A model generated the notes under the pieces. It was not told the DNA's origin. It saw only the letters and a program-made list of their open reading frames with translations, and did not search any database. Below, piece after piece: positions 2,871 through 45,431 of a stretch of DNA of 64,000 bases. The DNA is from Cladocopium goreaui (lineage: Eukaryota; Sar; Dinophyceae; Suessiales; Symbiodiniaceae): positions 1 through 64,000 of the forward strand of contig CAMXCT020001854.1 of assembly GCA_947184155.2 (NCBI GenBank), given 5' to 3'. Position numbers and translations under genes: made by a program. The first letter of the stretch is position 1; every line of letters begins with the position of its first letter.

Positions 2871-2907
2871 GGTACTCCCCTGACACGTCTTTGGTCAGAG
2901 GAGTGGG
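2871..2907. promoter_or_regulatory. Conserved-loop hairpin, copy 1
   Basis: Inner stem CTGAC (2880-2884) pairs with GTCAG (2894-2898) around loop ACGTCTTTG (plus strand). An outer helix continues across one mismatch. It lies in the leader of the gene starting at 2656. The stem differs from other copies by paired changes (CTGAC/GTCAG here, CCGAC/GTCGG and CTGTC/GACAG elsewhere). Confidence 0.75.
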
Positions 2908-3011
2908 AGCCCTGTACATGGGACGGTGGTTTGAGCCACAGGTATGCGATAGGGTATACTAAGAATGATGCCGTATCTCTACCTGTCGACATGTACCAAA
3001 GTCACGTGTAC

Positions 3012-3608
3012 TCATGAAGCACATGCTGAGCATGCATGCTGCCTTGGCGGAGACACGACTCTCTTTTTGCCAGAATTTTGAATTGGCAATATCACACCTA
3101 AGGATGATAAGCATAGTCCTTGCTTCGCGTCAGTTGATTCATCAAAAAAAGTTAAACAGTGAGTAAGTTCAGTGTAACTGTGTTGTACATAAGCTGTGGC
3201 AATGTACATTGTAGATGAATCCGTGAGGCCTATTCCTTCACGGGACAGCTGTTCAAGGAGCCCATCATCAAGGCGATCTACCGTCTCTTCCTTGATCGAA
3301 AAAACGCAAGGGGTCCTATGCATGAGTCCATTGGATATGAGGAGATAGTCTTGAATTTGTTGCTCTTCGATTCGGATTACTGCGTGTGTAGCAGTGTGTG
3401 CAATCCAAGTCTCCGCATCAGGCATTCGTAGGTGCAAAATTAGCAGTTCGATGTTGTCTCCTATCACTGCAGACGGAGGTCTTGCTTCGAGCGAGGTTGC
3501 TCCGATAACTCCATCCACAACGTCTAAGTGCTTCATTTCGTCACCATGGCAATTCCGTATGCGCTGTCTGACTAGGTCTCCGTGTCTAGCGTAATTGCTT
3601 GGAAACAT
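3012..3608 (-). CDS. Hypothetical protein
   Basis: 198 residues from ATG 3608. Not recognised. The middle is an alternating hydrophobic/acidic region suggestive of a compact alpha/beta fold (residues about 35-165). The C-terminus is basic and cysteine-bearing (C-x2-C-A near the end). It sits 170 nt downstream of the gene at 3779-4525 on the same strand, with no hairpin between them, so the two could share a transcript; hairpin copy 1 lies just past its stop. Confidence 0.5.
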   Translation of the reverse strand: MFPSNYARHGDLVRQRIRNCHGDEMKHLDVVDGVIGATSLEARPPSAVIGDNIELLILHLRMPDAETWIAHTATHAVIRIEEQQIQDYLLISNGLMHRTPCVFSIKEETVDRLDDGLLEQLSREGIGLTDSSTMYIATAYVQHSYTELTHCLTFFDESTDAKQGLCLSSLGVILPIQNSGKKRVVSPPRQHACSACAS

Positions 3609-3778
3609 CTAGTGATCTCAACCGATAACTACTGAGTGGTAATGTTGGATGTGTGTTGTGAGGTATCAACTCTTGAGCAAACGATGGCACGCGTAGGTAA
3701 TGAGTGGCACATAAACCATGTTGCTGCACCGATCTGTTATGCGGCAATTCTAAAATCCACAGCCATTTCACTGTTTTG

Positions 3779-4525
3779 TTAAAGGAGGACGACCTCCGGC
3801 GCACTCAACTCTCTGTCGGGACTGCGAATGGCCGCAGTGGGCGGGTCCTGCACGAGAAGACTAAATCTTATGTCGGGAGCCATCATTCTGGCCACTTCCG
3901 CTAGAAGCGTGTTAGGTTGGAGTCTTTGCATCGTTGAATTAGTTCCAACGGCTGCGGTGGTCCAGATGCGGAGGTTCGGTGGCACCCCTGACCGTAATAG
4001 TAGGAAAGCAACTTCCACTACTGTATCAGCTGCTTGCCGCATGGTTCTGCGGTCCAAGAATCCGCCCAGGGTCGCAGTGATATGTATTGTCTGAATGATT
4101 AACCGAAATGGTCGGGCATCCATTGGCACTGGGGCAAGTCCCGCCTGATCGGTCATGCCTCCATCAGCAGCTGGGACTAAGTAAAGGTGGTTGACCCACA
4201 CACCTCGTGTAGACGGGCGACTAAAACCTGCCACTCGGACTATGTCCTCGTACGATGCTGCTAGTGCTGTCAAGAGATGCTGTGTGATGCGCTGTCCATC
4301 CACTTCAACTTGCTGGAGGTCAGCTTCTAACGTGTTATATATCAACTGCAGTCCATGTGCTTCTTCTGGAAAAAAGGTGACACATCCACTCTGCACTAGC
4401 CGTACTGTGCGCCTGAGGTCTCGTACAGCCACCATAAGGTCTTGCGCTGCTTCCAAGCTATATAAAATCATCTTAACTGGCATAGGGAAGTGGTGTTCTT
4501 CTCCGCGGAGTCGCACATAATCCAT
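3779..4525 (-). CDS. Hypothetical protein
   Basis: 248 residues from ATG 4525. Not recognised. The sequence is balanced and largely hydrophobic-helical: a Leu-rich first 90 residues, then a strand-rich middle around GVWVNHLYLVP and long helices after it. There is no catalytic motif I can name and no transmembrane segment or signal peptide. Conserved hairpin copy 2 (4634-4670) lies 109 nt upstream of the start, as for other genes in this series. Confidence 0.55.
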   Translation of the reverse strand: MDYVRLRGEEHHFPMPVKMILYSLEAAQDLMVAVRDLRRTVRLVQSGCVTFFPEEAHGLQLIYNTLEADLQQVEVDGQRITQHLLTALAASYEDIVRVAGFSRPSTRGVWVNHLYLVPAADGGMTDQAGLAPVPMDARPFRLIIQTIHITATLGGFLDRRTMRQAADTVVEVAFLLLRSGVPPNLRIWTTAAVGTNSTMQRLQPNTLLAEVARMMAPDIRFSLLVQDPPTAAIRSPDRELSAPEVVLL

Positions 4526-4633
4526 GGCAGTGCGGGTAGAGAGAGTGGAGGCCCACTATACACAAATATTGCTGTCTTGCATTTATCGTGAGTGAAGAAT
4601 GAGATGGCAGTTAGCTGATGTTGTTGTCAGTCA

Positions 4634-4670
4634 GTTGCAATCCCGACACGTCTTTGGTCGGAAAGGCAAC
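4634..4670. promoter_or_regulatory. Conserved-loop hairpin, copy 2
   Basis: Inner stem CCGAC (4643-4647) pairs with GTCGG (4657-4661) around ACGTCTTTG. After a symmetric 4 x 4 internal loop, an outer stem GTTGC (4634-4638) pairs with GCAAC (4666-4670). It lies in the leader of the gene starting at 4525. Confidence 0.8.
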
Positions 4671-5272
4671 GTGTCCGACATGGTTACTTTATGTATGATA
4701 TGTTGAGTATTGAAGTATGTCGGTAATGCCTCTAAGACGACTGTCTCGCTAGGGTATCTCAGCCAGTATGATGGAGGAGATTAGTTATGTTCCTGTCCCG
4801 TTATCACTGAAGTAAACGCCCATCTAATCTTCACACCTTTGACTTAGAGAAGGGCCTAGGACATCAAGCAAGTAACCAATTGTGCACGAGTTAATACCAC
4901 TGAACAAGGATGGACAAGTTAAATGCGGGTTGGGGGTCATCCTGAGCCCTTCGTGAACATTCATTAAATGTAAATACACCGGACTGTCATATAACCAGCT
5001 AATAGGTGTGTAGGGGATATTGCTTGTTAGACATGCCAGCTTAGTAGGGATGAAGAACCTGTGAGCAAACACACGCACATGTTCACACTGCAGTCACCAC
5101 CAACAATGTCACAAAGGATGAAAGTGCCCCTACCAGGTGAGCATGTGGTGCAGTTCCCTTAAAGGTTATTTGCGTGATAAGCGAGAATAACCACAGGAAG
5201 AGATGACCCGTGAGCGCCTCTTTTGATTTGCTGGCAATCAACTTCACCTGACTTCTGCTACATCGTTGGGCC
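4671..5272. other. Intergenic stretch with no recognised gene
   Basis: About 600 bases between hairpin copy 2 and the stop of the gene at 5273. The short open frames here have no features that set them apart from chance. Confidence 0.45.
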
Positions 5273-6082
5273 TCACAGGTCGGTAAAGATGGTTGCATAA
5301 GCTTCACTGAGGGCATACCAATTTTGCTGTAGTCGGTAAAGTGCTCGGTTAGCTTCTTGCACAAGGTCATTATGTTGCCTTTGCAGCACTTGTATACCTT
5401 CACTAAGTTGGAAGATCCTATCCGCTTCATCTGCATGATTCGGAAACTGGCCTGCTATCGCAGCTTGGCACTCTTGCGAGAGCCGGAAATCAAAGCACGG
5501 TCGATCATCTTCATGGACAGCACTGTTGATTCGTGATTGCTCACTCAGTGCAATTCCTTCTAGGGTTGGCTGCAGTGTTTCAATGCGATTACCTAATATA
5601 TTATAAGCATGCATAATTTCTGCAATAATAGCACATTGTTGGGCATTCTTTGCAACTATTGCAAAGCGTCTGGAGTTGGCCCAGCATGCATATCCGTTGT
5701 GTCGCACCTCTGCCGCGAAGGGATAGAAACCACCGTATCCTGCGATATTCAACCAGGCCTGCAGGTAAACCTCGTCACACTCTCGAGGAATGACCTTATG
5801 GAATCCATGGGGCAGTGTAGCCCCCATCGCTACTGTCGTCTCCTCCGGAAGCCATGTTTCATCTTCAGCCCATAGGATGTTCCATTTTTCACCATTGAGC
5901 CATGTGCATACTTCCATCAAGTTAAATGCCCTACACTCTATGTTGACATTGTGACATAGCCTATGGATAGGATACTTGCCGCGATGTAGATTTGTCAGCA
6001 TATTTGGAGTGCTCTGAATGGTTTCGACGTTATAACCTTTCCAATGGTAGTTCCTCAGAAATGTCATGAGCGCGGTCGACAT
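5273..6082 (-). CDS. Hypothetical protein, second member of the paralogous pair
   Basis: 269 residues from ATG 6082. It is paralogous to the product at 1493-2656: shared NGE-x-WNI, DEVY, PFAAE, W-x-N-SRRFAIV and MHAYNILGNR blocks over about 110 residues. It lacks the long polar C-terminal extension and ends in a Gln/Leu-rich helix (last 50 residues) that could be a coiled coil. Function unknown. The conserved block suggests a folded domain kept under selection in both copies. Hairpin copy 3 is only 26 nt upstream of the ATG, the tightest spacing seen. Confidence 0.65.
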   Translation of the reverse strand: MSTALMTFLRNYHWKGYNVETIQSTPNMLTNLHRGKYPIHRLCHNVNIECRAFNLMEVCTWLNGEKWNILWAEDETWLPEETTVAMGATLPHGFHKVIPRECDEVYLQAWLNIAGYGGFYPFAAEVRHNGYACWANSRRFAIVAKNAQQCAIIAEIMHAYNILGNRIETLQPTLEGIALSEQSRINSAVHEDDRPCFDFRLSQECQAAIAGQFPNHADEADRIFQLSEGIQVLQRQHNDLVQEANRALYRLQQNWYALSEAYATIFTDL

Positions 6083-6107
6083 GGCTACGAGGGTGGAGCG
6101 TTTGCCA

Positions 6108-6144
6108 GGTGCAGTCCCGACACGTCTTTGGTCGGAAAAGCACC
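6108..6144. promoter_or_regulatory. Conserved-loop hairpin, copy 3
   Basis: Outer stem GGTGC (6108-6112) with GCACC (6140-6144), 4 x 4 internal loop, inner stem CCGAC (6117-6121) with GTCGG (6131-6135), loop ACGTCTTTG. It has the same geometry as copy 2 but a completely different outer-stem sequence, so the pairing and not the sequence is conserved. Confidence 0.85.
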
Positions 6145-7390
6145 GTGGCTTGGCAGCTGAGGGAAACCTATACTATGTATGGTAGTGTCAGGCAACAAAG
6201 TTAGCAACATTGAAGGTAGCACATCATGAGGTCAGCTGTTTTGTCTGAACTATGTCTGAGCCGATAGACTACGTGTACTGGCAAGGTGTTATGACATTCG
6301 TTACCCTGTATTAAAATTCCAGTGGCTGCCGGAATGGTACAGCTTTAATGTAACATGTCACTCAAGCTGAAAACACTCCATTCTTATTTTCTCAATAGCT
6401 GGACAAAATTGCGCAACACGCGGCGTAGCTACATTGGGACTGGCCAGTCGCTCAGAGCTCAGGAAAGGTGGGAACAGGGAGTTTGGAGGCACATCATCAT
6501 CTTGCTTCTTTTATAACACTGGCACTTCACAGTCAGTGGTAAAACCATTGCTAAGGTGAGCGCGGGAAGCAGTTCTCTCTCACATCATGTAGTTCTTCGC
6601 CTGTTGCTTCGCCTTGAGCAAATGGTAGTGGGCGGACTGCAAGTTGTCCAATAAAGTACAGCAAGCTGTGTACTTATTAATGACGCGTTTAATATGTAGA
6701 AGTCGTTCATCACAGCTCGATGTATCCGATGTAGCACACGCCATGGCAGGCAATCCGGTAACTGAAATTGTGTGATCTCTTTGAACTCAACAGACTATCA
6801 CAATTCATGTGGGAGAGGAATGTAAGACGGTTGAATTCCGGGACCACAGGAGTCCATTGACTGTTTATGTGAGGGACCCCTGTCACGTCTTTGGACAGAA
6901 GTACCCTGTGTAGTCTTAGCAAGGGAAAGTGATACATACTTCTGACAGGTCCATTGCGTGGTTATGGAGGAAATTACACACAAGGACAATTATGGGAGGT
7001 AGCACTAATTCTTGAGGTAACTGATAAATTCACAATCTTGGTCAGTTACTGCATATACCGCTGCTGAGGAGCCAAGAGGTGGGATATGCATAGAATCCTC
7101 GACATTCGGTACTACCGATCAGGTACTTAGTTGGAGTGTAGCTCATGGAACAGGGGAGCGCAGACTTGGATAAGACAGGCACAAGCAAATTAAACCAGAT
7201 AGAGAGAAGCAACAGGAGGGAGGTCAATATGTAGAGTGCCGTTAGAATCTCGCTACCTAGTGTCGAAGCCAAAGAGGGAGAGAGGAGTAGTGCTCAACTG
7301 GCAAGACAACCCCTCAGTTGACCAGTCATTTTGTCCTCTGCGCTGATAACTCGTTTGTGGCACAAACACATTGCGCAGCGATAAGTCTGC
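6145..7390. other. Gene-poor stretch holding one hairpin
   Basis: About 1.2 kb without a convincing ORF. Apart from the hairpin at 6871-6907 nothing is recognised; it could hold a decayed gene of the minus-strand series. Confidence 0.4.
6871..6907. promoter_or_regulatory. Conserved-loop hairpin, copy 4
   Basis: Inner stem CTGTC (6880-6884) with GACAG (6894-6898) around ACGTCTTTG. Outer pairing is AGGG (6872-6875) with CCCT (6904-6907). There is no intact ORF directly downstream on the minus strand, which suggests a lost gene. Confidence 0.75.
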
Positions 7391-7771: not shown

Positions 7772-8031
7772 TGGCAGAGATATGGAGTACAAAATTAACT
7801 AGCTGTGAGCAATAAACGGCTCATGAGCTGCACAATTATGCCTTGCCTCATAGCAGTTAAGCAGAGAAAGATGATCAAACAAATAAAAAGATGAGAGCCA
7901 ATAGCAGGTTCTACAACACTTATCAAACTCATTGGACTGAGGGGCTCGATAAGCCAGGCAAAACCGAAAAAACTGACTACCCTAGTATGTGTTCGTTGGC
8001 TGAGGTACAAGGAATGGGTATTTAGGTTGCT

Positions 8032-11000
8032 CTACGCCGTTTGGCCATGCGTTCCGTAGCCCGATGTTGGTGCTTGTGTGTTCCATCGGATGGGTCTCGT
8101 CCCGAATAGCTCACTTTCGATGTTTCTTTTCCTTTCGGTACGGAGGAGGGGGGAGGGATTTGTGGCCACGTTGACATCCTCGAGAGTCTGTATAAGAGCC
8201 TGAGCATCTGCGGCGAGTTCACGTAAACTGAAAAGGGGGGGATCGCATAAATCTAGCTGTAATTGATGGAGCATTACCCGTTCAGCTTCATAAAGTAAAT
8301 GTGGAGAGATTTCTTTTGGGAGCCAGAGTCCATCATGAAGCCAGATTGCTGATGTTACGTGACACCTTCTTGTTAGTTCCTTGTAGTAAGAGATCATAAT
8401 GTGTTCTTCATACCATTCAAGAGTTCGAAAAGCAGCACCTCTGACATGAGCAGCATATTGTGGCCTCCTTACGGGCAGGTGGTGGTTAACAAGAGCTTGT
8501 GTTGCTGATTCAATTTGAAGGCTGAGGTGATATAGTGCTGGAGGACAAGTGATATGGTGTTCCCTTTCAATTTTAGAACACGCTTCACTTGCCCCTGCAT
8601 TCATTACGATTAGCGGATGTCGCTTGACCACAGCAAACCGCTGATTTAGCGGCACTAACCCTAGCAGATCCATGAGTATCGCTCTCAGATCTACTATGTG
8701 TGGGAGGTGACTGCTGCGAAGGAGTCGTCGCATTATTTCGTAGAAAGCGCCGACCATGTCAACTTCCTTGTGCGTGTGTCCAAATAGGAGTAATCTTACC
8801 TTTCGTGGCAGTCTTTGAGCACAGGGACCTCTGCCATACAGTCGGCCCAGACAGTCTGTTGCAGATGCTGTATACTCTACTACTCGGGGTTTCGTGAGAT
8901 TGGCAGTGCCCGCTAAATAGGCCTCCACCTCTTTGCGGTATTGCTGGTTTGCAGTTTGCATCATAAATTTATTTACCAATTCTATGCTTACAGTCGGGAC
9001 TTCGGTAAGTAATAAGATCGTAACACCTAACGGCCTCTCTTCCAGTACAATAGCTCCAGATCGCATGGCCAACTGATAGGGCGCTTCAACCGCGATTTCG
9101 GTAGGCTCGCTTGTATGAGCTGGGAAGGCCTGTGCCGCTCGGCTCGCTATTCCAGCAAGATAGTCTGCGAGTATATTGGCTTCTCTTGGGCGGTATACCC
9201 ATTTTCCATGGTCAAAAAACCTCGATTGTTTCCAGCGAATTTGCTGTATAATAGGCTGTAGGTCGATCCGACGAAAGCGTCCTGCAAAGGCTAAGTGCTT
9301 TACGATGGGGAGGATATCCCCTTGTAAGTAGGCCTGGTCAACTGCGTAGCTTCTGTGTACCATTTCTTCACACAAAAGGTCTGTTGCGAGATTAGCTGAC
9401 ACCGCCTCAGCAAAGATATTGTCTGGGCAGCTAGGTAGTGCAATAGCTCTCCACTTCAGCAGCGTTAGGCCTTCTCGCTGAAGTTCTAAGAGAGCAGCGC
9501 CCGCCCCACCTGTTCCCTTATCAGCATGACAGGACCCGTCAAATTGTACTAGTAGTGTAGTTTTGTCCAAATTGAGACAACTACTAAGTACTTCATCGGT
9601 GCCTATAGGCTGTAATGCCGTAAGACGGCAATGATAGTCACCACACTCACACTGGAAAGTGGAAAGCGAGACATTTGGGGAAACTCCTGTTCCGACCTGG
9701 ATAGTTTGCTGAATTAATTGCAGTGGTTCAGAGCCTAAGGGGACAACCGCAACTGTTTGATTGGCTTCCACTGCTTCACGAGTAATGCATACTCGAGCAG
9801 GGGCAAGGGCACACGAAATGTGAAGTGGGGGTTTGTCACAGCACGAGAGTAGCGATTCATCAACAGAACAGTGGGCGGAAACTAACTGTGTCCTTATATG
9901 CTGCATACGAAGGTCCAGGGGTAGTTCTGTTTGTATTCTTTGCACGAGGTTATGTATCCAGGTATCCATGGGGGTAAGGGGAGCAGAGATTTGATGTCTC
10001 ATTGCACCTGATTCCCGTAGTAGCAACCTGAATTGATGAACTACTCGCGATGCTATTGCTAAGTGCTTAGCGCTTTTTCTTGACCCTTCGGCCAGCGACA
10101 GTATTGAATTATCTCCTGTCAGGCTTCTTAACGCGCTGATAGGTACTACACACCACCGAATCCAATGTCCTACAGTATTGTCTCCCTTTGAACATGCAAT
10201 GCATTTTTCCCAGTCTTCACTTGCCGGTAGTTCTTCTTGTGTAGGGAGTATTCTGCGTGATGCCTCAAGCAGTCTGACAAGGGAGTCTGTCGTGAAGGCC
10301 GTCAGCTGTTTGGTTACTATACATGTTTCACAAATTGCAATTTGATAGCCGCCGAGTGGGTATGCACGGCCAAAGTTTGCACAGAGAGCACATTTTTTTT
10401 GCCGACTTTGGCCACGTCGTGCTAACCACTCATCATCATCCTCATTAAATGCCCAGCGTAACAAGGTGAACCTAGTAATACTAGGAATCCATCGCTTGTT
10501 GGCCTCGCACGCATGGCTGAGCCATGCCCAGCTGATTCCTCCCGTCCATCCAGCTGTTAGTATCTTATTACGAATATAGTGAGATGCTAGCTGCATCATG
10601 TGATGGAGCACACATTTTTTGACTGCGTTTATTCGTTGTTTGATTGTACCACTTCCTGATACTGCTCTTGTTAGGACACCTTCCCCAACGACACGTGCCC
10701 ACGCTTGCCATAGTATCCTAACTTCGTGTGTTTGCCTGTTCACTGCCGGTGGAGTTTCAATGTAAAGTTCATGAACCTTTCCTCCTTTTCGCAGAAAAAG
10801 CCCTAATGCAGAAACAAGGATACTCACGCCCGGGTCAAGTAGTGGTGCAATTTTACACAGTCGAAATACGAATGCAAGGAGGTCATGTCTAATCCAACTT
10901 CGTCCTAGTAAGAGTTCCGTTGCTGCCGCGCGTAGCATTTGAAGATCTTCCGTGGCAGCACCAAAATAGGATGTAGTGTATAGTACCACACTTTGTGCAA

Positions 11001-14000: not shown

Positions 14001-14079
14001 TCGTTTTGACACATCGCGTAAGCATCTTGAGCAGTGTACGGAGCAGAGGAGCAGGCAAGTTCCGCAGAATCATCATCAT
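8032..14079 (-). CDS. EEP endonuclease - reverse transcriptase - zinc motifs - RNase H - TV-Pol-like fusion protein
   Basis: 2015 residues. The endonuclease/exonuclease/phosphatase domain (about 118-340) shows N in VWNVSGW, QET at 154-156, GDFN at 260-263, LDR at 301-303 and SGHY at 329-332. The RT (about 560-850) shows SAPGPDGIP, RPLGMPN, motif A VDLSKAF (Asp 715), a divergent motif B GVDMGRSFSV and motif C YIDD (806-809). Zinc-type clusters are C-x2-C...C-x2-C (1230-1253) and C-x2-C-x8-H-x4-C (1293-1310). RNase H (about 1507-1645) has FDGS (Asp 1514), AEA (Glu 1558) and LADY. At 1736-1935 lie GRLYGRG, AQRLPRKVR, EVDMVGAFYE and WLHDGLWLP, resembling TV-Pol family-A-like polymerases. The first half matches LINE architecture; the last domain does not belong to any LINE I know. 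ATG 14079 is the first Met, but the frame is open upstream into the 446-residue ORF. Confidence 0.85.
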   Translation of the reverse strand: MMMILRNLPAPLLRTLLKMLTRCVKTTYLFETGTQCPPYLSKIRDLSILPHILHVRTPWWKLTLQHVATLFHQGVDDFYQQLMCDSRTLPSLAVEEIGRSILEYRKAIRQDLPFRLKRLHVWNVSGWTLTTRAGDAKMRLIKRLLRTGPVLLQETRWHAETHQVLHHNIPGIQVAHTQGLLTERGGVSGGSAALIPPGWKLDRTEVVIPGRIVLAVIQDRYSTIGLLSVYLHPQTKVVELKELITWVKTSRVDFPLYMGGDFNQVDASCPDLWNELLVHAQVLDTHPQLHTFESPTGSSALDRVLCPTDYIAAAQIDVMVAANRRHHLSGHYQLTATFVVRPRVKSDMKDPVHQTIPTNVFCPGKNEADPYMVPNDLQELIRRIQRLPQTDEVEFVSTLWSWWRQQPIPSDHPRIPEHELLRKFLKIRAEVLHVPAKHFHALQAATYHIFTSNGVSELYPGKITIRSDLLKQIFDFLDQITMTRQYPALEQVNQQARGIGNNITFWNRLRSICPKGVIYNGPILNQQGEQCTTSQMLDEAMLDTRNFWFVKPQDSLQEWEPILREYQTASSWPSIELPQKQDFLHTLLGTKDSAPGPDGIPYSAWRLSPEDSYPVLDQLMMKMLAGLRAAPVQVGVWIPKAKVGPTADYFRPLGMPNTCDRLVDGTIAAVVMKATCAYMHPSQVVMNCFKEPQHAVHAIQALLDSNTPVAALLVDLSKAFERVNPYWILHILRMRNAPTWVCNYAKYILFGRLIRHKVQGRLLPPRAVHVGVDMGRSFSVFLFCLAMDPIYHYMNRIPRVLSVQGYIDDNTIAGPGHDITWVSRVHKCYQCCWSAGFQIDQHACWQAISTNCPPFSVQSLPGRIESEVILRQKKYPTARAAILSAILSQKTLLLARADKCIGLTPREACGILNGTDYTPICSLLALECNCRCKTALVINSPLPSWVLRQLDQSGFGAHCIQGVATSLGLLLLGRAQLSDRDLWTVTTHPTTLKQINPKAAEKFIHRLRLFRQPVLSVVSKSIAFNTFAQSVVLYTTSYFGAATEDLQMLRAAATELLLGRSWIRHDLLAFVFRLCKIAPLLDPGVSILVSALGLFLRKGGKVHELYIETPPAVNRQTHEVRILWQAWARVVGEGVLTRAVSGSGTIKQRINAVKKCVLHHMMQLASHYIRNKILTAGWTGGISWAWLSHACEANKRWIPSITRFTLLRWAFNEDDDEWLARRGQSRQKKCALCANFGRAYPLGGYQIAICETCIVTKQLTAFTTDSLVRLLEASRRILPTQEELPASEDWEKCIACSKGDNTVGHWIRWCVVPISALRSLTGDNSILSLAEGSRKSAKHLAIASRVVHQFRLLLRESGAMRHQISAPLTPMDTWIHNLVQRIQTELPLDLRMQHIRTQLVSAHCSVDESLLSCCDKPPLHISCALAPARVCITREAVEANQTVAVVPLGSEPLQLIQQTIQVGTGVSPNVSLSTFQCECGDYHCRLTALQPIGTDEVLSSCLNLDKTTLLVQFDGSCHADKGTGGAGAALLELQREGLTLLKWRAIALPSCPDNIFAEAVSANLATDLLCEEMVHRSYAVDQAYLQGDILPIVKHLAFAGRFRRIDLQPIIQQIRWKQSRFFDHGKWVYRPREANILADYLAGIASRAAQAFPAHTSEPTEIAVEAPYQLAMRSGAIVLEERPLGVTILLLTEVPTVSIELVNKFMMQTANQQYRKEVEAYLAGTANLTKPRVVEYTASATDCLGRLYGRGPCAQRLPRKVRLLLFGHTHKEVDMVGAFYEIMRRLLRSSHLPHIVDLRAILMDLLGLVPLNQRFAVVKRHPLIVMNAGASEACSKIEREHHITCPPALYHLSLQIESATQALVNHHLPVRRPQYAAHVRGAAFRTLEWYEEHIMISYYKELTRRCHVTSAIWLHDGLWLPKEISPHLLYEAERVMLHQLQLDLCDPPLFSLRELAADAQALIQTLEDVNVATNPSPLLRTERKRNIESELFGTRPIRWNTQAPTSGYGTHGQTA

Positions 14080-14164
14080 TGCAGGTACAAGAATCAGTTT
14101 AGTCCCTCCGTTGGGGCTTCTCCCAATGCGAAGAGCAGTCTGCTCTACTCCTCCGTACCTGCAA
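14079..14164. repeat. Perfect 10-bp inverted repeat at the ORF junction
   Basis: TTGCAGGTAC (14079-14088) and GTACCTGCAA (14155-14164) are exact inverted copies, 66 nt apart. A second palindrome, AGAGCAG-TC-TGCTCT, lies inside. The structure spans the stop of the 446-residue ORF and the ATG of the 2015-residue ORF, which are in different frames. Confidence 0.7.
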
Positions 14165-15485
14165 AGATAAGATATTCTCCTGATGGGTCCAGTGTATGCG
14201 ATTGTATGAGCTGAGTCCCAAGTTGCCTAGGCATTCGCCGCATGGACGATGACTGCGTATACCACATTGGTGACCATACAACAGGGGTGGCAACTTTGTA
14301 CGCGACAAAGGACTTAGATCTTGTAAGACCTTGAACTTGATGATTGTCAACAACGTGTACAGCGATCCATTGTGGAGTGGCACCACTAATATCTCGTGCT
14401 AATACACCTATAATACTTAAGCCGCCTGTGCCATCCAGACCACCGAGTAAATGGATGACAGTGCTAGCGGGCGAGGCGTTGTGCATAAAGCACTGCGGGG
14501 CACCAAGTGTGTGCAAGTAACACAAGGCACAAAAAGGGCACTGTAAAGCCGCAAATTCACTAAGGTGTATATAGTGCTGTCCATTATCAATTCGAGCAAG
14601 TATCGGGTAGGTCGCAAATGTATGATAAGAAACTTGCACCACATCAGCAAATATCTTTGGCATGTTGGCATGAATGAGAAAGTCTTTACTTTGTCGGTAG
14701 TCGAATGCGACCGTTCCAAAGCGAAACGGTTGATCAGGCTCATGAGAAAGCAACAGGAATAGCAGGCAAGGTCGCTGTATCCCAACATAGATAAGGGGAG
14801 GTTGCATGATTTTTGGTGCCCAAATGATAAAACCGTAGGGAAATTGGTGCTTTACACTAAGCGTTGCAATCTGGAAAACAACAAATAGTTGTTTGATAGC
14901 AGTAAGCTGTTCAGCACCCGTATATTCTCTCAACAGTTCAATATGCTTTGCTTTGATCTCTTGAGCTTCAGCATGAAATCCAAGACCATTTTTAACAGCC
15001 AAGTAAAGCCTGTGCGCTGATAGGGTAACATTTTCATATGTGTTTGAGGACTCTAGCACCCAATCAATCCGAGTTTGGGTTATAATATTGCTCAGCTCTT
15101 TATCCCCAAAGGGGGGTTTATCCTCACTGTGGGTTCCTTGATACTTCGGAGGTTTGGATCCTTGTAAAAAGGCGAAAACTGTCGGCTGGTGCACTATTGG
15201 AGGGCAAGCTGATTCGACACTGTCATTAAGAGTATAGTGCCTCCATTTCGCTTCAAAGTCAACTTTGTCATCTTTGAGTTGAACTCCTCGAGCGGCTGCT
15301 TGTTCCAGAACCAGTTTCAGCAGGTCTTGGTATTTGGAATATACTTCTTGAATACTCGGTAGGTCTTTGTGGTACGGCTGCGCATCATTGCTTCCCTCAA
15401 CCCACTGTTGCAGCTGATTATCAGTACCGAGAGCCGCACTGATGAGAGATGGGTGAAAGCTATTTCCACAAAAGTCTCGAATCAC
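14145..15485 (-). CDS. Continuation of C5 methyltransferase (motif X) plus unknown region
   Basis: 446 residues counted from a GTG; the frame is open to the TAG at 15531 and has no ATG near its beginning, so it is unlikely to start independently. Residues 2-20 read IRDFCGNSFHPSLISAALG, a good motif X (GN-x-(h)-P) of a C5 cytosine methyltransferase whose earlier motifs lie in the upstream ORF. The rest is not recognised. It contains a cysteine cluster C-x2-C-x2-C...C-x2-H in the second half, possibly zinc-binding. It most likely forms part of a longer protein interrupted by a frameshift. It ends at a TAG 66 nt before the next ATG, inside an inverted repeat. Confidence 0.6.
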   Translation of the reverse strand: MIRDFCGNSFHPSLISAALGTDNQLQQWVEGSNDAQPYHKDLPSIQEVYSKYQDLLKLVLEQAAARGVQLKDDKVDFEAKWRHYTLNDSVESACPPIVHQPTVFAFLQGSKPPKYQGTHSEDKPPFGDKELSNIITQTRIDWVLESSNTYENVTLSAHRLYLAVKNGLGFHAEAQEIKAKHIELLREYTGAEQLTAIKQLFVVFQIATLSVKHQFPYGFIIWAPKIMQPPLIYVGIQRPCLLFLLLSHEPDQPFRFGTVAFDYRQSKDFLIHANMPKIFADVVQVSYHTFATYPILARIDNGQHYIHLSEFAALQCPFCALCYLHTLGAPQCFMHNASPASTVIHLLGGLDGTGGLSIIGVLARDISGATPQWIAVHVVDNHQVQGLTRSKSFVAYKVATPVVWSPMWYTQSSSMRRMPRQLGTQLIQSHTLDPSGEYLIFAGTEE

Positions 15486-15486
15486 T

Positions 15487-15621
15487 TTATCCGTGAGAAG
15501 AGAAGGCCCATGTCTTTCTGTCGTGTCCTGCTAGTTTGCGTACTTCTTGGACCGTCAGAATTCTCATTGGCAGCACAATATTTGGGTTATGAAAGATAGG
15601 CACTAGTTGTTCAATGTTCAT
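15487..15621 (-). CDS. C5 methyltransferase motif IX segment in a third frame
   Basis: A 44-codon open frame whose ATG (15621) overlaps the stop of the 1754-residue ORF and which ends in TAA at 15487. It encodes MRILTVQEVRKLAGHD, the expected motif IX region (LT-x2-E-...-GH) between the catalytic part upstream and motif X downstream. The A6 run in the upstream ORF and the GGG run near 15507 are the simplest places for single-base shifts. This could be two indel mutations, two assembly errors or genuine recoding. Confidence 0.6.
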   Translation of the reverse strand: MNIEQLVPIFHNPNIVLPMRILTVQEVRKLAGHDRKTWAFSSHG

Positions 15622-18600
15622 CTTTTTTGGATGTGGTCGCTCTGTCTGTTTGAAGAGTAATAAGGAAACTTTTCCATATGGGGAGAAAGTGAGCAGGGAT
15701 GAAGCTTGCCCATGGCAGGTTTGGGACCCTAACTCCCTCAGCCATTTGGGCTAACAACATGAAAGATTTCCTCCCACCGAAAAAGGAATAATCCCATAGG
15801 AGTGCACTGGGCTGGTAGCCTGTCCAGGAAAGCTTCAGGATTCCATTGTTTGACAGCCCTCTTGTTCGGAGTAATGGGGCCAATGGTAAGTTTTCACCGT
15901 TCAAGGTCACTAAAGGGCCCCATTCATCGATAAAAGTGAGCGGAACACTGGCCAGTTTCTCTGTGTCCATGTGACTCCGTAGAAATACCCTTTTTCGCTG
16001 AATGCCATAATAGGGACCAGTGTCCCATACCCACCGACTGGTTGGTTGTTTACTAGGAAGTCCAAGACAATATAGAAACATTTGGAAGTGTTCAGACTGC
16101 TCAAGGCGCTGCATGCCTTTAGGTTTGCGGTCAGTTTGTACAATTTGCATGCTTCCAGCATTCTCTGTCAAATATCGGACCGATTCTGGTCCAAAGAGCT
16201 TCTGAAGATGCAGAATTACAAGGTAAACCACAAAAAAGAGCATACTTCGCTGACCTGTCAGCCCAAGCAATCCATTTAGGTAACCTGCATAAGTAAGATC
16301 TTGACAGGGAGATCCTGCAACAACAATCCACTTGATTGTAGGATACATTGCCTTGGCTTGACGAAGGATCAGAGAGTCACGGGCAACTAGATCCCATACA
16401 TCTTTAACGTAGATGGTAGCAACCCCTTCAATCGTATATGCCCACTGTTGGTCTTCACGCAGTCCTATTTCGGCAGCAACAAGCCGCCGTAAGACAGGGT
16501 CAATTTCTGCTGCGATGAAGATAGTAGGGGGTTTACCTAGTTTTTTCTTAATGATGTGATAGACCGATCCGACTCCATCAAACATCGAGATAACACCAAC
16601 GTTGGCCAGCGTTGCATGTGCGATAATCCTAGGTAATCCTTCAGGGTCAATCTCTTCAACTACATTCTCATTCTTACTATCTTTAGGGGGTCCATGTCTG
16701 GTCACCTTCGCCCTCTTCTTGCTCGACTTGGTTTTCGCATTGTTCTTGCATGAGGGGGGAGAGAGCTGCGAGGTTCGCGTTCTTTTCTGCTTCTGAGGCG
16801 TTTTGAGGAAGCCTTTGACAACCTTTAACTGTCTTTTGCGATACTGCGCAACGTCACCTCCTCCTGCTGCTTCAGAAAGTTGCTTTGTCATTAGGATTGC
16901 TTTGGGTGACTTAACTGGCAGTATGACAAGCCCACTGATGAGGAGCTTCCCGCTGACATGCTTACAGTCCGCAACTCGTATACCATTGTTATGGTCGTAC
17001 ATACTTATCATTCCAGGCTGACTAGTATGCAGGACTATGAGCTGGCTGTCAAAGTCAAGCCTAGTGGTGGCTATGAGACACTGGATTTCGTACTCTCTGT
17101 CTTGGAACATGAATTTGTGCCCAAGCGGGAGTCGTTCTTCCTCGAGCTTCGGAAGGGAGCATCCTGGAGGTACTTTGATTCGAACGATAATCAAGGGGCC
17201 AAATTTGCCGCATTTCCACTTGGCATTGGCAGTGTCTAGACATGAACAAGCTTGACACTCTGTCAATTCATTAGTATTCCAGATTGGAATTAACAAGTCG
17301 CAAAGTTCATCTATACCTGTATTAGGCTTGACTGTGGCAGTGAAGGTGTCAATTGGTGTTGCGCTAGACTGTAAGCACACCTGACATTGTAATACAAATC
17401 TTGAGAAAAGAAAATTACGAGTACTCTGACTAAGGTTTGCGCAAATGATTGAGTAGAGTTCATATACTGCATCGTTTTGTGCAGTGCCGTTAGGGGGAAT
17501 GGTGCTGAGTGTCGCAAGGGACAGGCAGGCATCAAAACATGTAAAGGGAAAAACCGTAGGTACTTGATGGACCCAACTCCACCCTACCCCTACTGCTGCA
17601 AGGGCTGCCTGTCGCACATGGATACTAACATGTGTTGGGATCCACGGCCCTCTTGATAGGAGGTACAATGCAGTATTCATGCTAGACATGTGACAACAGT
17701 TAATCGCAATGTCTTGGGCTTTATTAGCTAAGGCCGCAATAACGGGAGCATCAAGGGTCGGGAACCATTTGCGGCTGGATTCAGCAAAAGGAGAGAGAGG
17801 GGCAAACTGAGCTGGTTGGGACTGACTTTGAGTTTCACGTTCAAAGGATGTCTGGGCGGGGTCATTTTGCTTAGTATGGTCATCTTCCCCAGTGATATCA
17901 ATGCACACACGCGTTTTGTCGTTGGCCGGGAGGACAGAACTGCGTTTAAGGGCAGCCTGGATAGGGGGAAGTGCTTCTCCTTGATGTAAGGAGGAGGCCT
18001 GGGAAGACTTGGTCCTTGTGGGGGTTGCAATGCCAGGGGGATCTTCACCGATTTCTACGACAATAGAGTCATCAGGTAACAATGGCTGTTTTTCTGGCGA
18101 AGGATCATTTCTAATAGGGGCCTTAGAGGCAAGATCTGGAGGCTGACATTGACTTGGAAGTGTAGGTACAATGGGGTCACTGCACTCAGGTTTCGCATTG
18201 TCATTTGGTGAGGAAGGGGAGACACCAGGTGGGGAGGACGGAGTGACAACAGGGTCAGAAGGTTCATTAGACAGTCTGCCTTTGCTTGCAAGCCCACCTT
18301 TCACTTCACCACAAGTAAGTTTGGGCTCTTGGATGCTAGTTTTCTGACTGCTAAGAGCTTCTCCTTCACGTGTAGGGGGTTTCTTGACGGGGGTGGAGAG
18401 AAGTGCCGGTTGGGGAGGTAGCATCTCCTTATCTTCCTGCTCGCTTTTGCGTATATTATTTCCGTGATGGTCTTGATCAACAACCATTTCAGTAATCTGT
18501 TGCTCACCGGTGTCAGTTGGGTGACTAGCAGGTAGGTTGGTCCATGGGATGGTTGGGCTGACAGTAGGGGGGTCAGTGCGTGCATCCCCATGGGTTAATT

Positions 18601-20875
18601 GCCCTTCTGGAACGTTACCAGCACGCTGCGCACCATTAAGTTCACCTTGACTGCCTGACCGCTCTGCATTTGACTTCGCAGTGTCATGGACGCTTGCCCC
18701 AGCAACAGCCTCAGTGAGGGGGGGACTGTTTTGATACGGATTGACCTGCTGGGAGGGCGGAGTTGGTGGGGGGGTGACGCCTAAAACTGCGTAAGCCGGA
18801 AGCTGGTCAATTGCTTTCTTGCTGCTGGGGGGGGCAGACGGGGTCCTAAGCAGTTTGGCACCCTGGTCAGTTCGTTTGTCCTTCATGAGCGGCTGGTGCT
18901 GTGTGGAGCTTGTCGAAAGTACCGCGGTGGTTTTAAAATTGGTTCTGTTGTTGTCGAATGTACTAAATTTCCATGCAGCAATGGCTTCAACTTTAGTATC
19001 AGCAGTTAGCATGGTACTGAAGTCAAAGTGGGGAGGCACGAGCATAACGAGATAACAAGTTTTGAAGGGGTATATTTGTAAAGCATCGACCTTAGTAAGG
19101 TATAATGAGCTTTCGAGGCCATCAACTCGATTGATTTGACATTGCCTTCCTGACGGGATTTCAAACATCATGATTCTGGTAAATTTGGACACTTGTTCAA
19201 ACCTAAGGAAGTTTTGCTTGCAGAATTCTCCTTTTGCACTGTTCACTGCTTCAAAATGACTAAAATGAGTCAAAAAGATGTCCAGTGTATCTATTACAGG
19301 AATAGATTCCAGGAAGAGAATCCACGGGTAGGTCTCTTCAGAATACGTATATGATACCTGTTGAGTCTGCAAGTCAACTGCTGAGTCCTTCAGAAGTCCG
19401 AACCGTCGCTTCTGAGAAGCATTCTGGGTGCTGACAGGGGCAATGACAGTGAGTCTGTTTTTGAAGCTTGGATTACACTTTTCACCAATTCTACGCCAAT
19501 GCTCTCCTTTGGTCTCGTGCCTGGGTGGTTCACCCGGTGCACCAGTTTGTGGCAGTATGTTTCCACAATGCTCTATCGTGCAGACAATATTGTTATCTCT
19601 TTTGTCCTTGACTGAGAAAGAACATGGGAAGTTCTGCTTAACTTCATGAGGGATCCAAAAGGTGAGCATCGCGACATTGGCATTGAAAACGATTGTTTGA
19701 AATTCAAATTTGGATGCTGAAAACGCATTAATGAGTGCAAGACCGAGCTCTGAGTCAATGACTGCTACTTCATTTTCCAGGAGTGGGATGATGCTACTTT
19801 TTGCAATTTGAAGTGGTATAAAGGGCATACTGCCTATTGGTGCATACCTTACTTCCATTCGGTACCGGTTGCTGCCCATGGCAGTCACTTGACTAAGGAC
19901 AAATTGTGTCGATTGCTGGCGTTGCCCAAAGGGCAAGTACGTTGTTGAACAATGCAATAAATTGCGGAGCACTTCGATTTCTATGCATTCTAGTTTCAGC
20001 ATTACTTGAGCTTTAGATAGGAAGAAGTACTTAATTCTAAAGGACATGAGCTCCAGCGCAAGTGCATTTCGTTCTTGATCACTTAAGTGCCGAGTGGACA
20101 TAACAGTGAAAGTAGCAGCCTCCCGCAATTTATGTAAACGAGTCCAGTCAATACCTTCTTTAATCTGAAACTGGGTGGCTTGTGCTGTGTTAATTTCTTT
20201 CTGTAACGATTCGATTGCTTCACGGATTTTGGTTCTTTGTAAGCAAGAGTTCTTTTCATATTTGATGGTAAGCGGCACGCTTCCTTTTGACTTATCAGAA
20301 TTATAGCAGCCATTTGGTGATGTACTAGTCTCGCTGACTCCTGGATACTGCCCTTGTCGTAGTTCTTTGCCAACAAAATTTTCAAAGGCGATACGGGCAG
20401 GCATTATCAGCTCATCAGTTATCGTGTCAGGGATTTGCCATTCAATTACGGCTGGACTGCTTGACAGGCTATCCATTTTGACAAGATATAGTACAGTAGG
20501 ATATTTTTGATATTTGAGGGTTCCAGTGAGCTGCTTTATTTCTCGAATGGCTGCAATGTGTCTCTGGCAAGTGTCAAAAACTTTTGCTGCTATTTCGACT
20601 GGGCCAGTGTTGGCATGACACTCATAGATAAGTATAACAGTCTGTTGCATCGTTGCCAGTGTTTTCATAGCACTTTGAGCCGCTCCAAAAGAGGGAAACG
20701 CATAAGCAGTAGTCTCTTGCTTCGCTATCTGTGAATGCAGCTGATCATAGGTGGTCAGAAGTATGCCTTCAGGTGCTTTGATCTTACTCGGAAAATGTAC
20801 CATCAGAGTGGCATGCAATCCAAGTGCACCGAGATATTCCGCAGCAGCCTGTTGAGCCTCGATGTGTTCAGCCAT
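15611..20875 (-). CDS. USP-like / C5 cytosine methyltransferase multidomain protein
   Basis: 1754 residues from ATG 20875. The N-terminal ~680 residues are unrecognised. About 690-1030 is low-complexity Pro/Ser/Thr. At 1055-1320 the layout resembles ubiquitin-specific proteases: N-C-C-H-M-S-S in place of the N-T-C-Y-M-N-S Cys box, paired CQVC (1164-1167) and CQAC (1207-1210) zinc-ribbon cysteines, then a VLHTS and DHNNG region. The expected catalytic GHY His is not visible, so activity is doubtful. A basic linker (about 1345-1420) leads to a C5 methyltransferase from about 1427: motif I SMFDGVG, motif IV GSPCQDL (Cys 1524), ENAG in place of ENV (1571-1574), motif VIII QRKR (1626-1629). Motifs IX and X lie in other frames downstream. 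Eight conserved hairpins precede it. Confidence 0.8.
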   Translation of the reverse strand: MAEHIEAQQAAAEYLGALGLHATLMVHFPSKIKAPEGILLTTYDQLHSQIAKQETTAYAFPSFGAAQSAMKTLATMQQTVILIYECHANTGPVEIAAKVFDTCQRHIAAIREIKQLTGTLKYQKYPTVLYLVKMDSLSSSPAVIEWQIPDTITDELIMPARIAFENFVGKELRQGQYPGVSETSTSPNGCYNSDKSKGSVPLTIKYEKNSCLQRTKIREAIESLQKEINTAQATQFQIKEGIDWTRLHKLREAATFTVMSTRHLSDQERNALALELMSFRIKYFFLSKAQVMLKLECIEIEVLRNLLHCSTTYLPFGQRQQSTQFVLSQVTAMGSNRYRMEVRYAPIGSMPFIPLQIAKSSIIPLLENEVAVIDSELGLALINAFSASKFEFQTIVFNANVAMLTFWIPHEVKQNFPCSFSVKDKRDNNIVCTIEHCGNILPQTGAPGEPPRHETKGEHWRRIGEKCNPSFKNRLTVIAPVSTQNASQKRRFGLLKDSAVDLQTQQVSYTYSEETYPWILFLESIPVIDTLDIFLTHFSHFEAVNSAKGEFCKQNFLRFEQVSKFTRIMMFEIPSGRQCQINRVDGLESSLYLTKVDALQIYPFKTCYLVMLVPPHFDFSTMLTADTKVEAIAAWKFSTFDNNRTNFKTTAVLSTSSTQHQPLMKDKRTDQGAKLLRTPSAPPSSKKAIDQLPAYAVLGVTPPPTPPSQQVNPYQNSPPLTEAVAGASVHDTAKSNAERSGSQGELNGAQRAGNVPEGQLTHGDARTDPPTVSPTIPWTNLPASHPTDTGEQQITEMVVDQDHHGNNIRKSEQEDKEMLPPQPALLSTPVKKPPTREGEALSSQKTSIQEPKLTCGEVKGGLASKGRLSNEPSDPVVTPSSPPGVSPSSPNDNAKPECSDPIVPTLPSQCQPPDLASKAPIRNDPSPEKQPLLPDDSIVVEIGEDPPGIATPTRTKSSQASSLHQGEALPPIQAALKRSSVLPANDKTRVCIDITGEDDHTKQNDPAQTSFERETQSQSQPAQFAPLSPFAESSRKWFPTLDAPVIAALANKAQDIAINCCHMSSMNTALYLLSRGPWIPTHVSIHVRQAALAAVGVGWSWVHQVPTVFPFTCFDACLSLATLSTIPPNGTAQNDAVYELYSIICANLSQSTRNFLFSRFVLQCQVCLQSSATPIDTFTATVKPNTGIDELCDLLIPIWNTNELTECQACSCLDTANAKWKCGKFGPLIIVRIKVPPGCSLPKLEEERLPLGHKFMFQDREYEIQCLIATTRLDFDSQLIVLHTSQPGMISMYDHNNGIRVADCKHVSGKLLISGLVILPVKSPKAILMTKQLSEAAGGGDVAQYRKRQLKVVKGFLKTPQKQKRTRTSQLSPPSCKNNAKTKSSKKRAKVTRHGPPKDSKNENVVEEIDPEGLPRIIAHATLANVGVISMFDGVGSVYHIIKKKLGKPPTIFIAAEIDPVLRRLVAAEIGLREDQQWAYTIEGVATIYVKDVWDLVARDSLILRQAKAMYPTIKWIVVAGSPCQDLTYAGYLNGLLGLTGQRSMLFFVVYLVILHLQKLFGPESVRYLTENAGSMQIVQTDRKPKGMQRLEQSEHFQMFLYCLGLPSKQPTSRWVWDTGPYYGIQRKRVFLRSHMDTEKLASVPLTFIDEWGPLVTLNGENLPLAPLLRTRGLSNNGILKLSWTGYQPSALLWDYSFFGGRKSFMLLAQMAEGVRVPNLPWASFIPAHFLPIWKSFLITLQTDRATTSKKDEH

Positions 20876-20971
20876 TCTGGCTTTGTCTTCTCACCAAGAG
20901 AAAGGTTGTATGTGAGAGGTGTGTGAGTGGTATGACAAGTAGCCCGAGATAAGATAGGGGAGGGGGAGTAC

Positions 20972-21761
20972 CTGTCGCGTCTTTGGACAGATAAACCCGT
21001 AGAACAGGGGGAGAGAAACGAAACAAGGTAAGAGAGTGTAAAGAATGGAGTCACTTCAATAGGTTCGAAATGGTTCGAAATGGAAGTAACGAGAACCGAT
21101 TTAACAAATCAACTTAAAAAAAAGGGGGGGGACGAGGTGTCTCGAAATGCAAAACAGAGGGGGGGTGGGTAGAGGATACAGAGCACCTGTCACGTCTTTG
21201 GACAGATACACTGTGTGATCAGAGGCAGCGGTGGAGAGAACAGCGACCTGTCACGTCTTTGGACAGACACACTGTGTGAAATAGAGAGTAGTCCAGATGA
21301 AAAACAGAGGAGACGAGAGGAAACAAACCAAAAAAATCAAGTTAGAAGAGGGACCTTGGTAAAGCGGTGGAGTAGAAGGACAGTGACCTGTCACGTCTTT
21401 GGACAGATACACTGTGTGAACTCAAACTGGTAAAAAGAGAGAGAAGAAAGCAATCAGATCAAAAGAGGACCTTGGTAAAGCAGTGCAGTGGAGAGAACAG
21501 TGACCTGTCACGTCTTTGGACAGATACACTGTGTTGGCGTCAAATCAGGTAAAAAGGGGGAACTTGGTAGAGCAATGTAGTAAAAGTACAGTGACCTGTC
21601 ACGTCTTTGGACAGAAACACTGTGTGAGTGCAAAAATTCAAGAGGAAAAATGAAAACAGCGAGCCTGTCACGTCTTAGGACAGACACCCTGTGTGAAAAC
21701 AAATCGTCTAAAAAAGGGGTGAGTGTAGGTTGCGCAAGGTGCCTGTCACGTCCTTGGACAG
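20972..21761. repeat. Array of eight conserved-loop hairpins
   Basis: Eight copies have cores at 20972-20990, 21187-21205, 21248-21266, 21388-21406, 21505-21523, 21596-21614, 21665-21683 and 21743-21761. All have CTGTC/GACAG inner stems. Loops are ACGTCTTTG except for GCGTCTTTG (first), ACGTCTTAG (seventh) and ACGTCCTTG (eighth). Several have an outer ACAGTG/CACTGT stem (for example 21380-21385 with 21410-21415). Spacers are purine-rich and unrelated. The array fills the leader of the 1754-residue gene. Confidence 0.9.
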
Positions 21762-23097: not shown

Positions 23098-23155
23098 CTT
23101 TATGGATTATAGTCGGTCGGCTTGGATCTCGGCGAGGATTGCCACTGCCTTATTC

Positions 23156-45274: not shown

Positions 45275-45332
<58 letters not shown>

Positions 45333-45400: not shown

Positions 45401-45431
<31 letters not shown>

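What the first reader, a model, noticed from the sequence alone, without database searches (positions are those of the whole stretch)
2871..21761. Intergenic hairpin family with invariant 9-nt loop and covarying stems
Twelve hairpins share loop ACGTCTTTG (sense-strand CAAAGACGT), but the inner stem appears as CTGTC/GACAG, CCGAC/GTCGG and CTGAC/GTCAG. Outer stems differ completely yet still pair: GTTGC/GCAAC, GGTGC/GCACC, ACAGTG/CACTGT. Covariation with a fixed loop means the folded form is selected. Single copies sit in the leaders of successive minus-strand genes (26-215 nt before ATGs at 6082, 4525 and 2656), suggesting a shared RNA processing or translation signal, a transcription signal, or a recombination site bounding gene cassettes. 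I know of no family with this loop.
Basis: seen in the sequence. Interest (0 to 1): 0.88.

Follow-up and report, generated by a model that had tools for sequence, protein, structure and literature searches.

The report
Leader hairpins of giant dinoflagellate retrotransposon
A repeated RNA hairpin with an almost fixed loop sits in front of most genes of a roughly 34,000-base mobile element in what looks like a dinoflagellate nuclear genome, and its base pairs have co-evolved, so the element probably uses it as a signal in its own messenger RNA.

Summary
Twelve hairpins lie where stated, all on the minus strand, and a covariance model adds a thirteenth. The genome they come from (1.17 Gb) holds 1,362 exact copies of one stem type and 355 of another; a reversed control gives 0. 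Among 38 non-redundant copies the stem covaries far beyond shuffles. The sense (gene) strand usually folds better than the antisense.

Window 22109-1 is part of one dispersed LINE-type retroelement. It starts with a spliced-leader relic, ends in a short A-run about 34 kb later, and encodes at least 11 ORFs, most under purifying selection. ORFs include a cytosine-methyltransferase-like domain, an RT protein, ankyrin repeats and an SF1 helicase. It is a giant relative of SymbioLINE-Dnmt elements.

Hairpins precede seven ORFs. The two leaders with hairpin arrays hold no AUG before the ORF start (10 of 10 and 4 of 4 copies). I favour a leader (translation) signal read by a protein. Packaging or RNP assembly is the main rival, because one hairpin pair lies after the last large ORF. 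The mechanism is inferred, not shown.

The parts
22098..22132 (-). tandem relic of the dinoflagellate spliced leader; 5' end of the retroelement
   Evidence: Homology of five copies ends at 22108/22109 and of two more within the relic. An SL-like sequence is at the 5' end of the window copy and of 9 other copies (8 by regex, C161 by eye); C128 and C35 start inside the leader without one. SL motif recalled.
20876..22097 (-). ORF1 leader, 1222 nt, no ATG
   Evidence: 0 ATG, dinucleotide shuffles mean 7.6, 0 of 500 reach 0; first ATG is the ORF1 start in 10 of 10 copies
21722..21782 (-). hairpin 1 (loop CAAGGACGT)
21644..21704 (-). hairpin 2 (loop CTAAGACGT)
21575..21635 (-). hairpin 3
21484..21544 (-). 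hairpin 4
21367..21427 (-). hairpin 5
21227..21287 (-). hairpin 6
21166..21226 (-). hairpin 7
20951..21011 (-). hairpin 8 (loop CAAAGACGC), last before ORF1
15611..20875 (-). ORF1, 1754 aa, C-terminal cytosine-methyltransferase-like domain
   Evidence: TIGR00675 E 0.004, PF00145 E 0.037, both below cut-off; motifs by eye
14145..15485 (-). ORF2, 446 aa from a GTG (longest ATG frame 220 aa), no family found
   Evidence: dN/dS 0.14 to the C257 copy
8032..14079 (-). RT ORF, 2015 aa: endonuclease, reverse transcriptase, RNase H-like
   Evidence: RVT_1 E 1.4e-9; Exo_endo_phos E 0.0078 and RVT_3 E 0.018, both below cut-off; many homologues carry PF00078 with PF03372 and/or PF13456
7391..7771 (-). ORF of 126 aa
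   Evidence: dN/dS 0.30 to C257, 0.39 and 0.45 to two others
6859..6919 (-). hairpin 9
6580..6744 (-). shortened ORF; the C158 copy has a 127-aa ORF here. Window lacks about 185 bases at ~6600 that C158, C33 and C257 have
6096..6156 (-). hairpin 10 (CCGAC/GTCGG)
5273..6082 (-). ORF of 269 aa, no known family or fold found
   Evidence: dN/dS 0.03-0.16 in four copies; 47 homologues
4622..4682 (-). hairpin 11 (CCGAC/GTCGG)
3779..4525 (-). ORF of 248 aa
   Evidence: dN/dS 0.13 to C257, 0.17 and 0.33 to two others
3012..3608 (-). ORF of 198 aa, no hairpin before it
   Evidence: dN/dS 0.14 to C257 but 0.63 and 0.43 to two others
2859..2919 (-). hairpin 12 (CTGAC/GTCAG)
1493..2656 (-). ORF of 387 aa, paralogue of the 269-aa ORF (25% identity)
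906..965 (-). hairpin 13 (8-nt loop TAAAGACT)
   Evidence: E 6e-4; homologue in L063 (C257); the stretch is deleted in C158
2..892 (-). ankyrin-repeat ORF, runs off the window; start placed by me at the first ATG after hairpin 13
   Evidence: Ank_2 E 9e-9 on the frame read from 982; ATG at 892; dN/dS 0.14 to C257

Best explanation
The hairpins are a cis-acting RNA element on the sense RNA of a giant, multi-ORF LINE-type retroelement of a dinoflagellate. Shown: position in the retroposed transcript, better folding of the sense strand, covariation, extra conservation, and placement just before seven ORFs. Inferred: a protein (element- or host-encoded) reads the fixed loop and inner stem, and the hairpin marks the start of a translated leader. 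Either ribosomes enter there on the polycistronic RNA, or the hairpin is the 5' part of a separately trans-spliced mRNA. In both cases the ribosome scans from the hairpin to the next AUG. Probability about 0.95 that it is a selected sense-RNA hairpin of this element; about 0.45 that the leader/translation role is its main role.
For: Element: window 22109-1 recurs co-linearly at 89-99% identity in C158, C33 and C257, apart from internal insertions and deletions and contig ends. Different flanks, SL at the 5' end of 10 of 12 copies examined and a ~10-nt A-run at the 3' end of 3 of 3. Internal hairpins are in the same order at nearly equal spacing in C158, C252, C261, C150 and C161. RNA: sense MFE lower than antisense in 87, higher in 31 of 119 distinct hairpins; U.G at pair 6 in 36 of 38. 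Selection: covariation score 0.408 vs 0.163 shuffled, 0 of 500; five hairpin windows 9 of 250 differences vs 84 of 717 in flanks, window vs C257, p 9e-5; 8-copy ORF1 leader 96% identity to majority in cores vs 84% elsewhere. Leader role: 0 ATG in the 1222-nt ORF1 leader, and the first ATG is the ORF1 start in 10 of 10 copies; the first ATG after the first hairpin of the helicase leader is its start in 4 of 4 copies; four spacers upstream of single hairpins are not depleted (32 ATGs, 32.8 in shuffles). The first ATG after the hairpin(s) is the ORF start in 5 of 7 leaders, one of which (ankyrin) is so by my choice of start.
Against: A hairpin pair follows the last large ORF, with ATGs directly after it and 2.4 kb before the A-run; the 212-nt spacer before that pair also has no ATG (1.9 in shuffles, 60 of 500). 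Two leaders (ORF127, ORF248) hold 2 and 1 extra ATGs, and the five single-hairpin leaders alone are only weakly ATG-poor: 3 seen, 6.4 in shuffles. ORF198, ORF2, the RT ORF and the 126-aa ORF have no hairpin before them. No SL relic was seen at an internal hairpin, but the loci were chosen for hairpins. The array leaders being ATG-free also fits plain scanning from the spliced leader, without any role of the hairpins. No RNA or protein-binding data.
Confidence: 0.5

Rival explanations
1. RNP assembly or packaging signal: many binding sites for one element-encoded RNA-binding protein along the 34-kb RNA (5' array, one per spacer, 3' pair), placed in non-coding gaps because coding sequence cannot hold them.
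For: Fixed loop plus fixed inner pairs look like a protein-binding hairpin; 8 copies in the 5' leader and 2 near the 3' end, i.e. towards both ends of the RNA.
Against: Within spacers the hairpin lies near the next ORF (14-222 nt from stem end to ATG in the four measured; I ran no placement statistic), and hairpin-array leaders are ATG-free. No RNA-binding domain was found by Pfam in the ORFs scanned.
Confidence: 0.3
2. RNA-processing signal: the hairpin directs cleavage, polyadenylation or spliced-leader addition that splits the RNA into single-gene mRNAs.
For: The host lineage trans-splices mRNAs (PMC6050394 abstract, search listing); ATG-bearing spacers end at the hairpin.
Against: Hairpins of the 5' array lie ~340 nt or more inside an already SL-capped RNA. 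No internal SL-bearing retrocopy seen (small and biased sample). I noticed no constant acceptor site at the hairpins (by eye).
Confidence: 0.15
3. DNA-level site (recombination between cassettes, transcription factor or terminator site).
For: Hairpin plus ORF modules could be shuffled; ORF269 and ORF387, each with a hairpin, are paralogues.
Against: Sense strand folds better, conserved U.G pair, single orientation (12 of 12), all inside one transcript that moves by reverse transcription.
Confidence: 0.04

Closest known systems
SymbioLINE-Dnmt retrotransposons (de Mendoza et al. 2018, PMC5890265; abstract, sections 6 and 7 and a term search of the main text seen)
   Same: Dinoflagellate LINE; ORF with a cytosine methyltransferase upstream of an endonuclease/RT/RNase H ORF; conserved UTRs
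   Different: Those sections describe a DNMT ORF and an RT ORF, flanking site duplications and no poly(A); the main text does not contain the words hairpin, helicase, ankyrin or stem-loop (supplements not seen). Here ~34 kb, at least 11 ORFs including a helicase, a short A-run, and the hairpin family
Terminons, giant Penelope-like elements (PMC6431247, passages seen)
   Same: Retroelements up to 40 kb with accessory ORFs and an RNA structural motif
   Different: Penelope class lacking endonuclease, telomeric, hammerhead ribozyme; here a LINE with an endonuclease-like domain and a plain hairpin
Pr77/HDV-like ribozyme of L1Tc (PMC4035085, PMC4748587; starts of abstracts seen in listings)
   Same: Structured RNA or control element at the 5' end of a LINE in a trans-splicing protist
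   Different: A single 77-nt hallmark at the 5' end; no Rfam family matches the window here
SF1 helicase-bearing insect LINEs (PMC6338049, passages seen)
   Same: LINE carrying a viral-type SF1 helicase
   Different: Insect elements of other LINE clades; the helicase here is a separate 2524-aa ORF with its own hairpin-rich leader

Membership tests
SymbioLINE-Dnmt | DNMT domain in an ORF upstream of the RT ORF | tested here: met
   ORF1 C-terminus hits TIGR00675 (E 0.004) and PF00145 (E 0.037), both below curated cut-offs; catalytic motifs by eye. Weak by profile; no PDB match to a methyltransferase.
SymbioLINE-Dnmt | Endonuclease-RT-RNase H ORF | tested here: met
   RVT_1 above cut-off, the other two below; many homologues carry PF00078 with PF03372 and/or PF13456
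SymbioLINE-Dnmt | No poly(A) tail | tested here: not met
   ~10-nt A-run at the 3' end in 3 of 3 copies
SymbioLINE-Dnmt | Flanking target-site duplication | tested here: inconclusive
   No convincing duplication in the 2 copies with both ends fetched; one shares only an A-rich stretch
Any Rfam RNA family | Match at or above gathering score | tested here: not met
   0 in the window; in the ORF1 leader one hit at E 0.56 on the other strand. The part of the element beyond the window was not scanned.
Selected RNA structure | Covariation beyond shuffles and slid registers | tested here: met
IRES | Internal initiation in a bicistronic reporter | not testable with these tools
   no wet data
Terminon/Penelope element | Hammerhead ribozyme | tested here: not met
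   No Rfam family in the window; the 3' part of the element was not scanned
Terminon/Penelope element | Penelope-type RT without endonuclease | tested here: not met
   Weak endonuclease match in the RT ORF, and PF03372 in many homologues; no RT tree was built

The most novel reading that the evidence does not exclude
A ~34-kb LINE works like a polycistronic RNA virus: one spliced-leader RNA carries at least 11 ORFs, and a shared, protein-read hairpin opens successive cistrons for translation or for subgenomic mRNA formation.
Probability: 0.35. Interest if true: 0.92.

Novelty: new variant of a known kind. Interest (0 to 1): 0.8.

Why it matters
LINEs normally have one or two ORFs (recalled). 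A LINE of ~34 kb with many selected ORFs and a dedicated, repeated RNA signal would, as far as I recall, be among the largest known, and would show a eukaryotic retroelement running a multi-gene RNA programme. It also makes testable how dinoflagellates translate long polycistronic RNA. The hairpin is a simple tag for finding such elements in other dinoflagellate genomes.

Tried and rejected
Rejected: chance; a known Rfam family, for the window; a prokaryotic motif (at chance level); host-gene leaders in a cluster (the unit is a dispersed element). Tried without result: relatives of the helicase and RT in viral contigs; solved structures for the helicase and the ORF1 C-terminus; fold of the 269-aa protein (mean pLDDT 71.5; 0 matches at E <= 0.001 in PDB or BFVD); literature searches for the loop, the hairpin and giant dinoflagellate LINEs. 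The loop 9-mer occurs in 170 papers; the 20 listed have unrelated titles and none was opened. The first dN/dS run mixed the paralogues ORF269 and ORF387 and was replaced. Genome-wide counts of further stem types and a search for SL-led internal retrocopies could not be run. Left out of the hairpin set: loops in L039 and L044 with stem TTTGG and TCAAG/TCAAA, which do pair when wobbles are allowed (the L039 one scores 19.8 bits, E 0.004) but lack the C and G ends.

Full report
Check of the observation. A covariance model built from 38 non-redundant copies (A2), 11 of them from the window, recovers all 12 and a 13th at 906-965 with an 8-nt loop. The same short-loop form recurs in the leader of the helicase ORF in 5 copies. 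The hairpin is a 7-bp inner stem whose sixth pair is U.G in 36 of 38 copies, then a 3-nt internal loop, then an outer stem of at least 4 bp.

Covariation. On A2 the 11 pairs are standard in 90.0% of 418 cells (shuffled 76.7%, 0 of 500; slid registers 35-44%), 50 cells have changes on both sides (15.2 shuffled) and the covariation score is 0.408 (0.163 shuffled, 0 of 500). Two coarser measures are less clear-cut: 7 pairs with a double change (shuffled 5.4, 20 of 500) and 23 further pair types (19.5, 28 of 500). Pair 2 from the loop appears as UA 24, UG 7, AU 4, GC 2, GU 1; pair 7 as GU 13, AU 10, GC 7, UA 3, CG 2, UG 2 with one misfit. Pairs 3 and 5 never vary and pairs 1, 4 and 6 hardly do. 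The outer helix pairs in 73.7% of cells in this gap-free register. The copies are related, so shuffles overstate independence; the slid control and a single-step A-U to G.U change at one homologous hairpin argue the same way. The 119 distinct 69-mers were collected with a pairing filter. Among exact loops in the 20 loci none had fewer than 4 of 5 pairs, but the demand for C and G at the stem ends left out two loops in L039 and L044.

Which strand. Sense RNA folds better than antisense in 87 of 119 (31 the other way; means -19.2 and -16.6 kcal/mol). All 12 regex cores in window 1-22109 are on the element's sense strand.

What carries it. The genome holding the window is 1.17 Gb in 6,202 contigs; the window is contig 1854 from its first base. 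It holds 1,362 exact CTGTC-type and 355 CCGAC-type hairpins. Window 1-22109 recurs in order in C158 and C257, and 1357-19886 in C33 up to where I fetched; C158 and C257 have internal deletions in ORF1, C158 also lacks window ~502-1215, and C33 has a 1-kb insertion. Homology of five further copies stops at window 22108/22109, inside a spliced-leader relic. Such a relic stands at the 5' end of 10 of 12 copies examined: nine by regex (window, C80, C113, C158, C257, C150, C252, C255, C261) and C161 by eye; C128 and C35 begin inside the leader without it. In the window, C257 and C161 it is in tandem. C113 and C255 have a different leader subtype with hairpin arrays. Past window base 1, copies C158 and C257 continue into the leader of a 2524-aa ORF, which is seen whole in C43, C113 and C150. 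Three copies end at the same point with about ten A. In C150 the two ends are about 34 kb apart on one contig. I fetched only its end regions, but its internal hairpins (15.3, 17.7, 31.6 and 31.7 kb from the 5' end) follow the window's order (15.2, 17.5 kb). In C252, C261 and C158 successive internal hairpins are 952-954 and 1459-1474 bases apart, in the window 763 (after its ~185-base loss) and 1474; C150 and C161 give 2425 and 2436 for the two steps together. Distances from the 5' end differ (13.0-17.4 kb to the first internal hairpin), and C252 and C161 are longer overall, so copies carry insertions and deletions.

Genes. In order: ORF1 with a C-terminal cytosine-methyltransferase-like domain (weak: E 0.004 and 0.037, both below cut-off), ORF2, the endonuclease/RT/RNase H ORF (RVT_1 E 1.4e-9), a 126-aa ORF, a 127-aa ORF (shortened in the window), ORFs of 269, 248, 198 and 387 aa, an ankyrin ORF, and the 2524-aa ORF with an SF1 helicase (on the excised region AAA_19 E 2e-4, below cut-off, and Viral_helicase1 21.4 bits against a cut-off of 21; on the whole protein 14.4 bits). 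dN/dS against the C257 copy is 0.07-0.15 for ORF1, ORF2, RT, 269, 248, 198, 387 and ankyrin, 0.13 for the 127-aa ORF (C158 vs C257) and 0.30 for the 126-aa ORF; the helicase ORF gives 0.09-0.14 in four long comparisons. Against some very close copies values are higher (ORF1 0.37 and 0.48, 126-aa 0.45, ORF248 0.33, ORF198 0.63 and 0.43, ankyrin 0.43), in line with decay of single copies (rows under 60 codons or with 5 or fewer differences and HSPs under 60% identity were dropped). So the parts downstream of RT have been kept by selection and travel with it.

Hairpins and genes. Arrays of 8 and 4 precede ORF1 and the helicase ORF; single hairpins precede the 127-, 269-, 248- and 387-aa and ankyrin ORFs; a pair lies after the helicase ORF. 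Five hairpin windows diverge less than their flanks (9 of 250 against 84 of 717, window vs C257); I pooled only this copy, the closer ones having few differences. The ORF1 leader has no ATG in 1222 nt (shuffle mean 7.6, 0 of 500), and in 10 of 10 copies its first ATG is the ORF1 start. The helicase leader has none in 613 nt (12 of 500 shuffles) and its first ATG after the first hairpin is the ORF start in 4 of 4 copies. Four spacers before single hairpins carry ATGs at shuffle frequency (32; 32.8). After single hairpins 3 ATGs are seen where shuffles give 6.4, which is weak. The first ATG after the hairpin is the ORF start in 5 of 7 leaders, the ankyrin one by my own choice of start; the 127- and 248-aa ORFs are the exceptions.

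Mechanism. The placement and the ATG-free array leaders fit a signal that opens a scanned leader. The ORF1 leader alone would also fit plain scanning from the spliced leader. I cannot tell internal entry from separately trans-spliced mRNAs. The 3' pair does not fit the leader role and keeps an RNP or packaging role alive, alone or in addition. Fixed loop and fixed inner pairs suggest a protein reader; none was found.

Known relatives. SymbioLINE-Dnmt is the nearest published element I found. Its main text mentions no helicase, ankyrin or hairpin and describes no poly(A). I therefore file the element as a giant variant related to that group, and the hairpin as an RNA family not found in Rfam (window scanned) or in the papers listed by my nine searches. 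Giant retroelements of another class (Terminons) and helicase-bearing LINEs in insects are known. The dinoflagellate assignment rests on the recalled spliced-leader motif, abstracts in search listings on SL-tagged retrogenes (PMC6050394; PMC12014239) and a homologue named symbB.

Changes after checking: the count of spliced-leader 5' ends, the spacing statement, the ankyrin caveat, the ATG-free spacer before the 3' pair and the two left-out loops were mended; the first-ATG claim was tested.

Noticed in passing
window 26246-27145 and 43292-44191: Near-identical direct repeats 17,046 bases apart (100% over the 300 nt reported), possibly the long terminal repeats of a very large element with other repeats nested inside
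   Followed up: no
window 32485-32784 and 40070-40369; 54895-55172 and 62396-62673: Two further pairs of 99% direct repeats about 7.5 kb apart, which look like LTR pairs around long ORFs
   Followed up: no
window 22134-24550: A separate dispersed repeat lies just upstream of the retroelement; copies C161 and C150 (by eye) are flanked by pieces of the same repeat
   Followed up: partly
L039:4519 and L044:4496: The exact loop with a different, partly wobble-paired stem (TTTGG/TCAAG or TCAAA), in a sequence shared by two contigs and outside the element; chance or a distant relative
   Followed up: no
window 45062-45623 and 47491-48531: Long CATCAT and CTACTA arrays, largely inside open frames
   Followed up: no
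L057: Two identical 3'-type hairpins 2,728 bases apart in C97, suggesting a local duplication in another subfamily
   Followed up: no
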